A stretch of DNA of 37,067 nt, taken from assembly GCF_902809815.1 (NCBI RefSeq), contig NZ_CADDIL010000005.1:1421-38487 (forward strand), in the 5' to 3' direction. Below, piece by piece: positions 5,341 through 35,852 of the stretch; position 1 is the first letter of the stretch; each line of letters begins with the position of its first letter. The translations under genes and the position numbers were made by a program. Under the pieces are notes generated by a model, which was not told where the DNA came from, did no database searches, and saw nothing but the letters and a program-made list of their open reading frames with translations. Origin of the DNA: Spiroplasma endosymbiont of Danaus chrysippus (lineage in GTDB: Bacteria; Bacillota_I; Bacilli_A; Mycoplasmatales; VBWQ01).

Positions 5341-6606
5341 TTATCCTAAATCTTCGTCCTTTATTAGAATTTCACGATTAGGATTTTGTTCAATTATTAA
5401 TTGTTTGTAAATTGTATCACGATATTTTACACAACCATCAATAACATTATCTAAAGGATTTAGAGCAGTCCGCACTTCAAAAAGATCTCCTTCATATTTT
5501 TGACGCATTGGTTTTGTACCTTTTTCAGTTTTAACTTCAATATAATATTCTTTAGCTAATTCTTCTTGAATAAATTTATCAACTTTTTTAATATAAGCTC
5601 CACCACCACAAATTGTGATTCCCTTACCTTTTTTCTTTAAATCACTAATACTTCCAGCAGCCTTGTCACCAGCAGTTCTTAGTACTCTACGAATGGCCGG
5701 AATAATATGTTCTTTGAATTGAGCTTGCATAACATTTTCACGAATTTCTTCTGGTGTAATTTCAATAGTTTTAGAAATTGACATTGTTTCTCCTGGTTGA
5801 GAATTTAATCTAGGTAATGAAAAACCCGAAATTGTGTATGGTTTTTCATCTTGATATTTCATAAGTGAGCCAATATTTTTAATAACATCTTCAGCTTCTT
5901 TTATTCCAACTTTTAAGACATGTTTTTTTATAATATATTCTTGAACTTTTTGTATTAAATAGTCACCAGCACAATGTGTTGTATATGAATATAATATTGA
6001 ATTATTACTAATAATAGCAGCATCAGTACTGCCACCACCAATATCAATGCACATAATTGCACTTCCAAAAATATCTTGCCCTGAACCTAAGGCTGCCATT
6101 TTTACTTCTTCTTGTACAAATCCACGGAGTGCTCCTAAACGATATACAATATTTTCTAAAGCTTCTTTTTGTACTGAATTAATTTCACTTGGTGTTGCCA
6201 TCAACACAATCAAATTACGATTTTTATCTAATTTTTCATGTTTTTTTATAGAATTGTTATTAATTTCTTTTAAATTTTTAATTTCAAGTCTGAAATCTTG
6301 AAAAATTTTAGTAAGAATACGTTGTAAAGCATCTGGATCAGCAATATTACCATCACGAACTGGACGTTTAATAATAACGTTTTCATTTGTTTTGTCAGTT
6401 AAAGCCTTAGCCTCTTCACCGTAAAGAATTCTATTTTTTTCATAGTCTTCAGCTAAATAGGTTGGAGCATCATATCTAAGACCTATATTAATATGTCTAG
6501 CTTTAAAGTTTTCTGTTCCGATATCTAAAGCTAATCATTGATAATCAGTTATTGATTTAAGTTTGTTATTTTTCTGATTTAAATTTTCTTTTCTTGTTTT
6601 AAACAT
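5341..6606 (-). CDS. mreB: MreB-family bacterial actin, long divergent form
   Basis: 421 aa, some 70 residues longer than a usual MreB. Actin-fold ATPase motifs are visible: phosphate-1 LDIGTENFK (residue about 25), phosphate-2 DIGGGSTDAA (about 187) and the adenosine motif CGGGAYI (about 330). The segment MATPSEINSVQKEALE corresponds to the PSGIT region of MreB. In Spiroplasma, MreB paralogues form the internal ribbon that gives helical shape and kink-based swimming. I cannot say which paralogue (1-5) this is. Start at ATG 6606 with AAAGAAAGGG upstream; internal TGA is Trp. Positions 6130-6248 are duplicated, inverted, inside fruA at 7632-7750, but this copy reads as the intact donor. Confidence 0.88.
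6130..6248 (-). repeat. 119-bp inverted repeat, donor arm in mreB
   Basis: Identical by eye, in inverted orientation, to 7632-7750. The bases just outside differ at both ends. Here it encodes residues about 120-159 of MreB and fits the MreB alignment, so this is the original arm. Confidence 0.9.
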
Positions 6607-6885: not shown

Positions 6886-8335
6886 TTGGAAAGGAAAGTA
6901 AAATTGAAAATAACTAATGATTTATTAAACAAATCACATATTATTTTTGAATCTAATACTAAAAATCAAATAGAAGCACTAACTAAAATTATTGATTTAG
7001 CATTTTCATTAGGTTATATTACTAATCGTGATGAATTACTAAAAGCATTTCTTGCTCACGAGCAAGAATCATCAACAGGTTTTGAAGGTGGAATTGCAAT
7101 TCCACACGCTAGAATTAAATCAATTAAAAAACCTGCAATTCTAATATTATGTAATAATAATGGTGTTGACTGAAAAGCAATAGATGGACAATTAACAACT
7201 TTTATTATTGCTTTAATAATTCCTGAAACACAAGCAGAAAATTTACATTTAGATATTTTAAGTACACTTGCAATTAAACTTGTAAATGAAGATTTTCGTA
7301 AAAAATTAAAAAATGCAAAAAATTCACAAGAAATAATATCGCTTATTAATGATGAAACAGTTAAAAATAGTACTAAAAAAGAAATAAAAACAATGAAAAA
7401 TAAGGGAACAAAAAAAATTATTAGAGTTTCTTCTTGTACAACTGGAGTAGTTCATACTTACATGTGTAAAGAATTATTAGAAACCGCAGGAAAAGAACTA
7501 GGCTATCAAGTACATATTGAATGTCAAGGTCAAAAAAGACCAGAATATGTACTAACAGAACAAAAAATTAAAGAAGCGGATGTCGTTATTTTAGCAACAG
7601 ATGTTGCAATTGACTTAGAACGTTTTATTGGTAAAAAAACATGAAAAATTAGATAAAAATCGTAATTTGATTGTGTTGATGGCAACACCAAGTGAAATTA
7701 ATTCAGTACAAAAAGAAGCTTTAGAAAATATTGTATATCGTTTAGGAGCAATGGTTGGATTTGATATGGGTGGTCCAATTAATAAAACAGCTGTTCTTGT
7801 TGCAACATCATTAATGGTACAAGATGGTAGTCGATTAATGGGACCAGTAGCAGCAGCGATTCCGATTGCACCATTGGGTTGTGCATTAACATCAACAGTA
7901 TTTAGTCGTAAATTATTTACAAAACAAGAACAATCATTAGGGTGAAATGCCTGATTATTAGGGTTTATGGGAATTTCTGAATCTGCTATTCCATTTGCAG
8001 TAAGAGATACATGAAGAACAATAGTTGCTAATGTTATTGGTAGTGCTGTTGCGGGTGCTTTAGCATTTGGTTTTGGTGTACTTGGTCATGTTGGGGCTTG
8101 AGGTTCTTTTATTATTGCTTTATTTGGTGGTGTTACTAATATTGATGGTAGTTATATTGGTATTTTATGATATGCAGTAGCTATTATTATTGGTACGGTA
8201 GTACAATCTATTATTTATACTTCACTTTTATTGCAAAATCAAGGATTATATAGATCTTCAATTTTAATGTTATTAAATAAAATTGGAATTAAAACTAAAA
8301 ATAAAAAAAAGAAAATAATATTAATATATGAATAA
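6886..8335 (+). pseudogene. fruA: Fructose PTS EIIABC, disrupted by an mreB fragment
   Basis: Fructose-class phosphotransferase transporter in the order EIIA-EIIB-EIIC. EIIA (residues about 1-150) has the phospho-His in GIAIPHAR (about residue 74). EIIB (about 175-255) has the phospho-Cys in SSCTTGVVHTYM, variant of CPTGIAHTFM. After DLERFIGKK the sequence switches to 119 bp copied from mreB; the fru frame stops at 7654-7656. The rest of EIIC resumes at MVGFDMGGPINK (7751), in frame with the mreB piece, and keeps GISESAIPFAVRD and late membrane helices, ending at 8333-8335. Roughly the first half of EIIC is missing, so transport should be lost. A free EIIAB (about 256 aa) could still be made. 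Start is TTG 6886 (AAAGGAG at 6867) or TTG 6904. Confidence 0.88.
7632..7750 (+). repeat. 119-bp inverted repeat, recipient arm in fruA
   Basis: Copy of mreB positions 6130-6248 in inverted orientation. It replaces the early EIIC part of fruA. The arms are separated by 1383 bases that contain the mreB 5' end, the divergent intergenic region and the fruA EIIAB part. Confidence 0.9.
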
Positions 8336-26155: not shown

Positions 26156-26647
26156 TTATATTTGTGATAAATTTGATTTACTTTTATTTGTTACAGAAAA
26201 ATTAATTTCTGCATTTACATTATTAATTATATTTTTTTTGTTAATTCGTAATATTAGTTCATTTATTTTTACTAAATTTTGTTGTTTAATTTCTTTGATT
26301 TTTGTTAAAATAGTTATTTTTGTTTTTATTTTTTTTATTTCAATTAAATAATCCAATAGTAAGTACTTTTATTATTTTATTTATTTTTTTATTATTTAAT
26401 TTTTTTGATAGGTTATTTATTGAATTTATAAAATTATTTTCTAATTTTTTTAAAGATTCTAAAGTTTTTATTTTTTTATTTAAAAATTGATAATGATTTT
26501 GAGTATTTTTTTATTATTTTCTCAAAAGTCAAAAATATCATTGTAATCTTTACTATAAGTTTCAATTGGAAAATGTAAATAAAGATTAATAATATGATAA
26601 TTATCTGCTATAAAGTTAACTTCTCTTTCTAAGTCATTAATATCCAT
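26156..26647 (-). pseudogene. Coiled-coil protein, two homopolymer frameshifts
   Basis: ATG 26647 (GAGGAGAC upstream) opens MDINDLEREVNFIADNY and reads to DFWENNKK, then stops soon after a run of seven T (26506-26512; A7 on the coding strand). Adding one A restores NTQNHYQFLNKKIKTLE and a Lys/Asn/Leu coiled coil through IKVLTIGLFNWNKK. There an A8 run (26329-26336) must lose one A to continue as IKTKITILTKIKEIKQQN to the stop at 26156-26158. The composition and layout resemble the intact coiled-coil genes at 26812 and 30694, so this is probably a decayed member of the same kind. No known domain. Confidence 0.6.
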
Positions 26648-26811
26648 TTTTAATGTCTCCTCTTTTAAAATAAAGTAATGGGTTAAAACTTTGATTAAGT
26701 TTGTTTTTATATTATATATTATTTTAATTTTATAATTCAAAAATTAAATTATAAATAATAAAAGTGTTGTTATTAATAATTATTTAAATTTTTATATAAA
26801 AATATTTAAAA

Positions 26812-27189
26812 TTAAAAAATTGTGCATGGTGGACAACATTTTTTACCATATTGCATATTAATTAATTCTTCTGAATTTATACTATTTATATCATCATTTG
26901 TTATTAGAAAAGTACTATCTTTTAAATATTCATCTTCATTATTTAACTGTTGGAGGTTAAAATTAAATTCTAGATTTCCATTTTCAATTTCATCTAAATC
27001 TTCTTCATAATCTACTAATAATTTTTGTTTTAAGTTAATAATTTTTTCATTAATTAAAGCAATTTCTTTTAATACCTTTTCTTTATTATTAAGACTAAAA
27101 TTTTTGTTAAATGGATTGAAACTTTTTTCTAATTCTTTTTTCTCTTTTTTTAATTTTTTTATTTCTTTTTTTTGTGCATTTTTTTTCAT
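26812..27189 (-). CDS. Small coiled-coil protein ending in a CaaX-like motif
   Basis: 125 aa, ATG 27189 with AAAAAAGGAG eight bases upstream. The first 70 residues are a highly charged coiled coil (KKEIKKLKKEKKELEK; EIALINEKIINLKQKL), then an acidic region (DYEEDLDEIENG), then a short basic/cysteine tail: GKKCCPPCTIF at the very end. The last four residues, CTIF, fit the eukaryotic CaaX prenylation box, and the adjacent Cys-Cys pair and Lys pair resemble tails of prenylated GTPases. No signal peptide. Preceded by a type-2 leader hairpin. The function is unknown and the CaaX reading is inference; a metal- or disulfide-binding CC-PP-C cluster is the simpler alternative. Confidence 0.75.
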   Translation of the reverse strand: MKKNAQKKEIKKLKKEKKELEKSFNPFNKNFSLNNKEKVLKEIALINEKIINLKQKLLVDYEEDLDEIENGNLEFNFNLQQLNNEDEYLKDSTFLITNDDINSINSEELINMQYGKKCCPPCTIF

Positions 27190-27204
27190 AATTTTCTCCT
27201 TTTT

Positions 27205-27364: not shown

Positions 27365-27832
27365 ATGATTAAAGATAAAAAAAATAATGTTGAAATCATT
27401 AATGTCAGTAAAAACTATGATAGTAATGAAGTCATTAAAAATGTTAGTCTGAATATTGCTATTGGTGCCAAAATTGGTATTGTTGGCCCCAATGGTACTA
27501 GAAAAACAACATTATGTGAAATGATTTCCCAACTTCGTAAACCAACAACGGGTACTATTAATATTAAATCTGATTTAAAAATAGGCATGCAATTACAAGA
27601 AACTAAATTTCCTCGTGGTTTAACTGGTTGAGATATGGCCCAATATTATATGAGAGCTTATCGTTTAAATAAGTCTGTTGAAGACATTCAAAAGTTATTG
27701 TACTATTTGGACGCCGAAGCATTTATTAATAAACCTATTATTACTTTATCGGGTGGTCAACAACAAAAAATAAATATTTTATTAGCATTAATTGTTGAAC
27801 CAGATTTATGGGCGTATCAAGTTAATGGTTAG
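27365..27832 (+). pseudogene. ABC transporter ATP-binding protein, degenerate
   Basis: 155 aa instead of the usual 220-300. N-terminal strands and Walker A are recognisable but altered: GPNGTRKTT, with Arg in place of the invariant Gly before the Lys. The signature TLSGGQQQK is intact. The sequence breaks off at the start of Walker B (ALIVEPDL, then WAYQVNG and stop), so the Walker B Asp-Glu, the H-loop His and the C-terminal part are missing. With both nucleotide motifs damaged it should not hydrolyse ATP. No permease gene lies next to it. GGAAGAAAG precedes ATG 27365. Confidence 0.85.
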
Positions 27833-35591: not shown

Positions 35592-35852
35592 TTAAGCATT
35601 ATCTAATATTACTTCACTCATATCACTACCATAATATTGACTTGATGTTTCACTATTAATTGTGAATCTATTATCATTAATTAATCTTGCAGTTTCATTA
35701 TTAAATGATGTTTCTTGCATTTCTTCAATATGATTAGTTGTTTCCATAGGTAGTAAATTATGGATAATTTCACTTGCACCAGCAATTATGGTAGGTACTG
35801 CATAAGCATTATTAAAATCATTATTAATACCCATAGCAACACCACTTGATAT
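35592..35852 (-). pseudogene. Membrane-type cassette protein, 5'-truncated by IS256
   Basis: Open from the IS256 junction at 35852 to TAA 35592-35594. The fragment begins SSGVAMGINNDFNNAYAVP and continues TIIAGASEIIHNLL, then an acidic Ser/Thr/Asn tail (SSQYYGSDMSEVILDNA). SSGV followed by a small-residue membrane stretch recalls the SSGVGG segment of the glycine-zipper gene at 8819. A Met at 35834 could start an 80-aa product, but no ribosome site precedes it. The start of the gene was lost to IS256 copy F. Confidence 0.6.

What the first reader, a model, noticed from the sequence alone, without database searches (positions are those of the whole stretch)
26812..27189. Bacterial coiled-coil protein ending in a CaaX-like prenylation tail
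The C-terminus is GKKCCPPCTIF. CTIF fits C-a-a-X with Phe at X (a geranylgeranylation-type residue), preceded by Pro-Pro, a Cys pair that could be palmitoylated, and two Lys, the usual set-up of membrane-anchored small GTPases. Some intracellular bacterial effectors, for example in Legionella, use host prenylation in this way. No signal peptide is seen, so export into a host cell would need another route.
Basis: partly seen in the sequence, partly recalled or inferred. Interest (0 to 1): 0.55.

Follow-up and report, generated by a model that had tools for sequence, protein, structure and literature searches.

The report
Spiroplasma proteins with host-like lipid tails
An insect-associated Spiroplasma bacterium makes a small helical protein whose last four residues look like the signal animal cells use to attach a lipid anchor; related strains carry the same kind of ending on other, different small proteins, which hints (unproven) that the bacterium borrows the host's lipid-attaching enzymes.

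Summary
In detail: window 26812-27189 (-) is a 125-aa ORF ending QYGKKCCPPCTIF at its stop codon. It is a real but accessory gene of a Spiroplasma-type genome (TGA=Trp), found in 2 of 6 genomes of the genus, dN/dS about 0.23. It has two helices, a disordered tail, and no signal peptide or membrane segment. One CaaX end alone means little: Spx in the same genome ends CEIF. What lifts the case is recurrence. The last 27 residues match the end of an otherwise unrelated 321-aa membrane protein in G002 (CPPCSIL*; 0 of 5000 shuffles). Three more small proteins in other strains end CVIS, CSIL and CIIF. C-x-I-[FLS] stands at 5 of 2025 distinct C-termini, against 3 in total over 11 shifted positions. 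Several tails also share [DE]xxxL[LI]...INSIN, like an acidic dileucine sorting signal. No genome of the family has a recognisable protein prenyltransferase, so any prenylation would be the host's. Against: some homologues keep the tail but not the CaaX end, no export route is visible, charges near membrane segments may put tails inside the bacterium, and nothing is biochemical. Host prenylation is the leading but unproven reading.

The parts
26812..27189 (-). P0001, 125-aa ORF: coiled-coil/helical N-terminus, disordered tail, CaaX-like C-terminus
   Evidence: orthologue in G003 96% identical, dN/dS 0.23
27196..27199 (-). GGAG, likely ribosome-binding site 6 nt upstream of the ATG
   Evidence: sequence; conserved in G003
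26983..27189 (-). residues 1-69, Lys/Glu-rich helices (predicted 2-22 and 36-69)
   Evidence: AlphaFold2 model mf9f46ce41d2b, (two-sequence alignment; mean pLDDT 65.4)
26902..26919 (-). residues 91-96 DSTFLI, fits [DE]xxxL[LI]; aligns with ERTPLL, ETTPLL, EVTPLL in other tails
26866..26895 (-). residues 99-108 DDINSINSEE, segment shared with small membrane proteins (DITSINSEQ and the like)
26824..26838 (-). residues 118-122 CCPPC, cysteine cluster before and within the CaaX end
   Evidence: CPPC shared with P0002 in G002
26815..26826 (-). residues 122-125 CTIF, CaaX-like end directly before the TAA stop
   Evidence: C-x-I-[FLS] ends elsewhere

Best explanation
P0001 is an accessory protein of an ixodetis-type Spiroplasma endosymbiont: a short helical domain joined to a disordered tail that also occurs on otherwise unrelated small proteins of the same genus. 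SHOWN: the tail is a shared, reassorted module, and a terminal C-x-I-[FLS] recurs on at least five different proteins in five of six genomes of the genus. INFERRED: the ends are read by the host. If the protein reaches the cytosol of an arthropod cell, geranylgeranyltransferase I (X = F or L; farnesyltransferase for the CVIS protein) would lipidate Cys122, possibly helped by palmitoylation of Cys118/119 and the lysines at 116-117, holding the helical domain on a host membrane; the [DE]xxxL[LI] part would be a second, adaptor-binding sorting signal. How a protein without a signal peptide leaves the bacterium is unknown (lysis inside the host cell, or an unrecognised route).
For: Tail homology between P0001 and P0002 (G002): Smith-Waterman 66, 0 of 5000 shuffles reach it, best of the other 875 sampled C-termini against the P0002 tail 31; N-terminal parts no better than shuffles, 37 of 500. 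Both end C[ST]I[FL] exactly at the stop. Three further ends: CVIS in G005, a coiled-coil protein with a TEVTPLL tail; CIIF in G004, a small membrane protein with EETSLLSQTQINSIN; CSIL in G005, soluble. Terminal C-x-I-[FLS]: 5 of 2025 distinct C-termini, against 0,1,0,0,1,0,0,0,0,0,1 at shifts 1 to 11. No PF00432 prenyltransferase in 9 of 9 genomes of the family; the 14-genome control rang in 3. Purifying selection on the gene, dN/dS 0.23. Ixodetis-clade Spiroplasma grows inside tick cells (PMC13049210, passage).
Against: The C-x-I-[FLS] motif was chosen after seeing hits; the looser textbook CaaX gives 11 at the true end but 10 at shift 1 and 8 at shift 5. One of the five is Spx (CEIF), a likely chance end, and one is P0001 itself, which was ascertained. 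CaaX ends turn over: homologues of P0002 in G000, G003, G005 end SSERRLSV/I, the G004 one runs on to VILITI; homologues of the CIIF protein end AITAIL or AISVSL; L052-type ends HCQLTF(S). No signal peptide or TM in P0001, L139 or L140. For P0002 and L178 the residues next to the last TM are Lys/Arg-rich (3 K/R), which by the positive-inside rule may put the tail in the bacterial cytoplasm. The link of L128 and L124 to the tail profile is weak (E 1.27 and 0.137), and L139 was not found by the tail HMM at all.
Confidence: 0.38

Rival explanations
1. The tail works inside the bacterium. The shared [DE]xTPLLxNNDIxSINSE stretch is a docking peptide for a Spiroplasma partner (for instance a membrane complex or a protease adaptor), and the terminal Cys residues are incidental or hold proteins together by disulfides or metal.
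For: No export signal in P0001; the best conserved part between orthologues is the internal ETTPLLSQTQINSINN stretch, not the end; membrane-flanking charges of P0002 and L178 favour an inside tail; tails without any terminal Cys exist (L058/L091, L124).
Against: Does not explain why five unrelated ends have Cys at exactly -4 with Ile at a2 and F/L/S at X; a CPPC-type metal or redox site would not need the stop codon directly behind it.
Confidence: 0.33
2. The end is a PDZ-ligand-like C-terminus ([ST]-x-hydrophobic) rather than a prenylation site, bound by a host or bacterial PDZ domain.
For: CTIF and CSIL also fit a class I PDZ ligand, CIIF a class II one (motif classes recalled; ends).
Against: CVIS does not fit, and the Cys at -4 is the common residue while position -2 varies (T, S, V, I, S).
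Confidence: 0.08
3. Chance: an AT-rich genome with many short, fast-evolving ORFs yields a few CaaX-like ends, as Spx CEIF shows, and the shared tail of P0001 and P0002 spread by recombination without any lipidation.
For: 8 of 876 ORFs have Cys at -4, equal to the Cys frequency; the loose CaaX count is not clearly above shifted controls; Spx ends CEIF in G000 and G005 and CEFF in G006.
Against: P0001 and P0002 tails are conserved through the end although surrounding genes differ (lon C-terminus 87% identical between these genomes); C-x-I-[FLS] ends exceed shifted positions.
Confidence: 0.21

Closest known systems
Host-prenylated CaaX effectors of Legionella (PelC, PelE; AnkB recalled) and Salmonella (GtgE; SifA recalled)
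   Same: C-terminal CaaX at the stop in a bacterial protein, no prenyltransferase in the bacterium, relatives that live inside host cells
   Different: Those are injected by a type IV or III system; here no secretion system or signal is seen, the host is an arthropod, and prenylation is not shown. Known from abstract beginnings in a search listing only (PMC13081727, PMC13423502, PMC4951486)
Eukaryotic acidic dileucine sorting signals, [ED]xxxL[LI] bound by AP-2 sigma2 (motif in abstract of PMC3655264)
   Same: ERTPLL, ETTPLL, EVTPLL, DSTFLI, ENTSLL in disordered tails, several after membrane segments
   Different: In a bacterium; exposure to host cytosol and AP binding untested; similar stretches can arise in acidic, Leu-containing tails
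Tails of Ras/Rho-type small GTPases
   Same: Lys, Cys cluster and CaaX with X = Phe (recalled: brain CDC42 ends CCIF)
   Different: No GTPase domain; the body is a short helical protein
Spaid and other toxins of vertically transmitted Spiroplasma (PMC10232968, passages)
   Same: Spiroplasma proteins thought to act on host cells, modular and recombining
   Different: No ankyrin, OTU or RIP domain here

Membership tests
Host-prenylated CaaX effectors | CaaX box exactly at the C-terminus | tested here: met
   CTIF directly before TAA, same in G003
Host-prenylated CaaX effectors | CaaX end conserved among homologues | tested here: inconclusive
   Same in the G003 orthologue and in P0002; absent from other tail homologues
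Host-prenylated CaaX effectors | Bacterium lacks its own protein prenyltransferase | tested here: met
   PF00432 in 0 of 9 genomes of the family; control rings in 3 of 14. PF01239, the other subunit, was not tested
Host-prenylated CaaX effectors | Delivery into the host cytosol | not testable with these tools
   No signal peptide-like or TM segment in P0001; secretion genes were not surveyed
Host-prenylated CaaX effectors | Lipid on the Cys and Cys-dependent membrane binding | not testable with these tools
   needs an experiment
Acidic dileucine cargo of clathrin adaptors | [DE]xxxL[LI] in an unstructured tail | tested here: met
   DSTFLI at residues 91-96; pLDDT below 50 at 75-96 and 107-125, but 98-103 and 106-113 are modelled as short helices
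Acidic dileucine cargo of clathrin adaptors | Tail exposed to host cytosol and bound by an AP complex | not testable with these tools
   needs an experiment; membrane-flanking charges of P0002 and L178 argue for a bacterial-inside tail
Ras/Rho small GTPases | GTPase domain | tested here: not met
   No Pfam family at its cut-off; best hits E 0.11 and 0.36, unrelated

The most novel reading that the evidence does not exclude
Ixodetis-type Spiroplasma endosymbionts carry a small, fast-changing set of proteins whose portable tails copy two eukaryotic trafficking signals, an acidic dileucine and a CaaX box, so that arthropod adaptors and prenyltransferases place bacterial proteins on host membranes: a prenylation-mimic repertoire in a wall-less bacterium that has no known injection system.
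Probability: 0.3. Interest if true: 0.85.

Novelty: new variant of a known kind. Interest (0 to 1): 0.58.

Why it matters
How Spiroplasma endosymbionts act on their hosts (male killing, protection, incompatibility) is known for few proteins. A shared tail with host-like targeting signals would give a sequence handle to find further host-acting proteins and a simple test in insect cells. The papers searched show no report of it: 'Spiroplasma'+'prenylation' (1 paper, unrelated by title), 'Spiroplasma'+'CaaX' (3 papers, none on Spiroplasma by title) and 'Spiroplasma'+'dileucine' (1 paper, unrelated by title), seen as search listings only.

Tried and rejected
Led nowhere: whole-protein searches of genome contigs, viral contigs and plasmids found no relative; Pfam and NCBIfam gave nothing near a cut-off; the pattern TATGGNAAR..CPPCxxx-stop in genome contigs gave 13 stretches, of which only L048 is a Spiroplasma, and 0 in viral contigs; the other 12 were not read and are taken as chance from their taxonomy. 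The AlphaFold model of P0002 was too poor (mean pLDDT 44.5) and was not searched. N-terminal coiled-coil matches of P0001 (L011-L013) and of the CVIS protein (L131-L134) look like unspecific coil matches; L011-L013 were not read.

Rejected: a genome-wide excess of CaaX ends in G000 (8 of 876 with Cys at -4); a general genome-wide excess of [DE]xxPL[LI] (12 against 8.0 +- 2.7 in shuffles; the narrower PLL form 9 against 3.6 +- 2.0). The count of 10 of 12 tails fitting [DE]xxxL[LI] is descriptive only: three of the twelve (L077, L106, L080) were picked through that motif or confirmed by it, and the tails are partly homologous. Likewise the Fisher value rests on a profile that contains some of its hits.

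Error of mine: the P0002 tail was typed with REPLLIEE; the sequence reads REPLIIEE. Nothing in the report rests on those two rows; searches use the right letters.

Full report
What is there. The window lies in G000 (1,745,430 bases, 12 contigs). TGA is read as Trp in its conserved genes, as in Spiroplasma; G002 of the same genus shares its contig length of 67,579 with the record L048, Spiroplasma sp. AdecLV25b. The ORF at 26812-27189 (-) encodes 125 aa ending QYGKKCCPPCTIF, with GGAG upstream. Its neighbours are lon on the other strand, a second small helical gene behind it, and the start of an ABC transporter gene in front.

Is it a gene. G003 has it at the same place, 96% identical, the last 36 residues and the stop unchanged; 4 synonymous and 5 nonsynonymous differences give dN/dS 0.23. 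Whole-protein searches found it in 2 of 6 genomes of the genus and none of the other 53 searched (one search lists three weak coil matches, E 1.9e-4 to 0.006, not taken as homologues). At the lon locus of G001, G004, G005 and G002 it is absent: it is accessory.

Is the end more than chance. Alone, no. In the 747,650 sampled bases of G000 8 of 876 ORFs have Cys at -4, matching the Cys frequency of 1.05%, and Spx ends CEIF. But a search with the last 28 residues in 9 genomes of the family found G002:C55, E 0.0012: a 321-aa membrane protein, P0002, ending SEDLLIASQYGKNLYCPPCSIL. The two ends score 66 in local alignment; 0 of 5000 shuffles reach this (highest 45), and the next of 876 sampled C-termini against the P0002 tail scores 31; the N-terminal parts are no more alike than shuffles (37 of 500). 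So an end including CaaX is shared between two different proteins. The CPPCxxx-stop pattern occurs in 4 of 40 relatives: G000, G003, G002 and one distant hit (G022).

The tail family. The stretch before the end, STFLITNDDINSINSEEL, resembles the tails of small membrane proteins: SERTPLLRNNDITSINSEQL (L052-L055 in G001, G000, G003, G005; 0 of 5000 shuffles against P0001), KKRTPLLANNDVTNINNFEL (L058, L062), ETTPLLSQTQINSINNNEV (L124, L123) and EVTPLLWLNDVSIINS (L128). The last two are weak by E-value (0.137 or 0.0907, and 1.27). L128, in G005, is a 112-aa coiled-coil protein that ends CVIS; the profile that found it contained no C-terminal residues, though I read it among other weak hits, most of them chance.

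Census. In samples of five genomes (G000, G005, G004, G002, G006; 2731 ORFs) two more appeared: L178:16869-17312 in G004, a 147-aa membrane protein with EETSLLSQTQINSINN ending QKCIIF, and L139:13922-14458 in G005, 178 aa without a membrane segment, ending NQYQQKCSIL. Of 2025 distinct C-termini, C-x-I-[FLS] stands at the end in 5 (P0001, L139, L140, L178, Spx) and at shifts 1-11 in 0,1,0,0,1,0,0,0,0,0,1. Without P0001 (ascertained) and Spx this is 3 against a mean of 0.27. The motif was framed after the fact, and the looser CaaX (11 at the end; 10,3,3,2,8,2,5,3,1,2,2 at shifts) is not convincing by itself. P0002 lies outside the sample.

Evidence against. The end is not kept everywhere. P0002's homologue in G004 (51-52% identical) lacks CPPC and reads out of register with G002's at the end, running on to VILITI; those in G000, G003 and G005 end SSERRLSV or SSERRLSI. 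The orthologues of the CIIF protein end AITAIL and AISVSL. L052-type tails end HCQLTF(S), L056 HCSM. The best conserved part across orthologues is the internal LLSQTQINSINN. P0001, L139 and L140 have no hydrophobic N-terminus; P0002 and L178 have 3 Lys/Arg next to the last membrane segment, which would favour a tail inside the bacterium if bacterial insertion applies (crude hydropathy).

Structure. AlphaFold2 on two sequences gives helices 2-22 and 36-69 and a low-confidence tail (pLDDT under 50 at 75-96 and 107-125).

Mechanism. PF00432, the prenyltransferase beta family, is absent from 9 of 9 genomes, so prenylation would need the host. Ixodetis-clade strains are cultured as intracellular infections in tick cells (PMC13049210, passage; the same reference list names an extracellular CI Spiroplasma, so lifestyle varies). 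CTIF, CSIL and CIIF have X = F or L, typical of GGTase I, CVIS of farnesyltransferase (recalled rules). I take host lipidation as the most likely use of the end (0.38), a bacterial-inside docking tail as the main rival (0.33). Step shown: shared, reassorted tail with recurrent CaaX-like ends. Steps inferred: export, lipidation, membrane binding, adaptor binding.

Novelty. CaaX effectors are known in Legionella and Salmonella (abstract beginnings). A tail module carrying CaaX ends in a mollicute was not found in the three literature searches made for it, of open-access papers only.

Noticed in passing
window 26156-26740 (-), compare L017:10569-11118 and L070:194-619: The small helical gene behind P0001 is split here into two frames, in G003 it reads on further and in G001 (L070) as one 141-aa frame; the difference lies in runs of A/T.
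   Followed up: partly
window 27365-27832 (+), compare L017:9019-9825: ABC transporter ATPase gene is cut to 155 aa here against 268 aa in G003, and its Walker A reads GPNGTRKTT instead of GPNGTGKTT: a decaying copy.
   Followed up: no
window 7628-7750 (+) and within 5341-6606 (-): About 40 residues (KKHEKLDKNRNLIVLMATPSEINSVQKEALENIVYRLGA) of an MreB-like gene recur at the start of a fructose-PTS-like ORF in the opposite orientation: inverted duplication, gene conversion or assembly fault.
   Followed up: no
L106:11827-12129, L077:5166-5495, L097:12619-13077, window 35592-35834, L131:747-1535: Further lineage-specific small proteins with DERMPLL, EFAPLL, ERARLI, ETARLI, EIAHLI in acidic tails, some ending in Cys (LPNYGSIC) or carrying SINSETxSQYGS.
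   Followed up: partly
L091:1195-1590, L160:7385-7780, L212:3734-4129: Spx-like protein ends CEIF in G000 and G005 and CEFF in G006: a useful warning that a CaaX-like end can be incidental.
   Followed up: no
L127:925-1725, L125:1231-1767: Ankyrin-repeat ORFs in G003 and G005, met as weak profile hits on the other strand.
   Followed up: no
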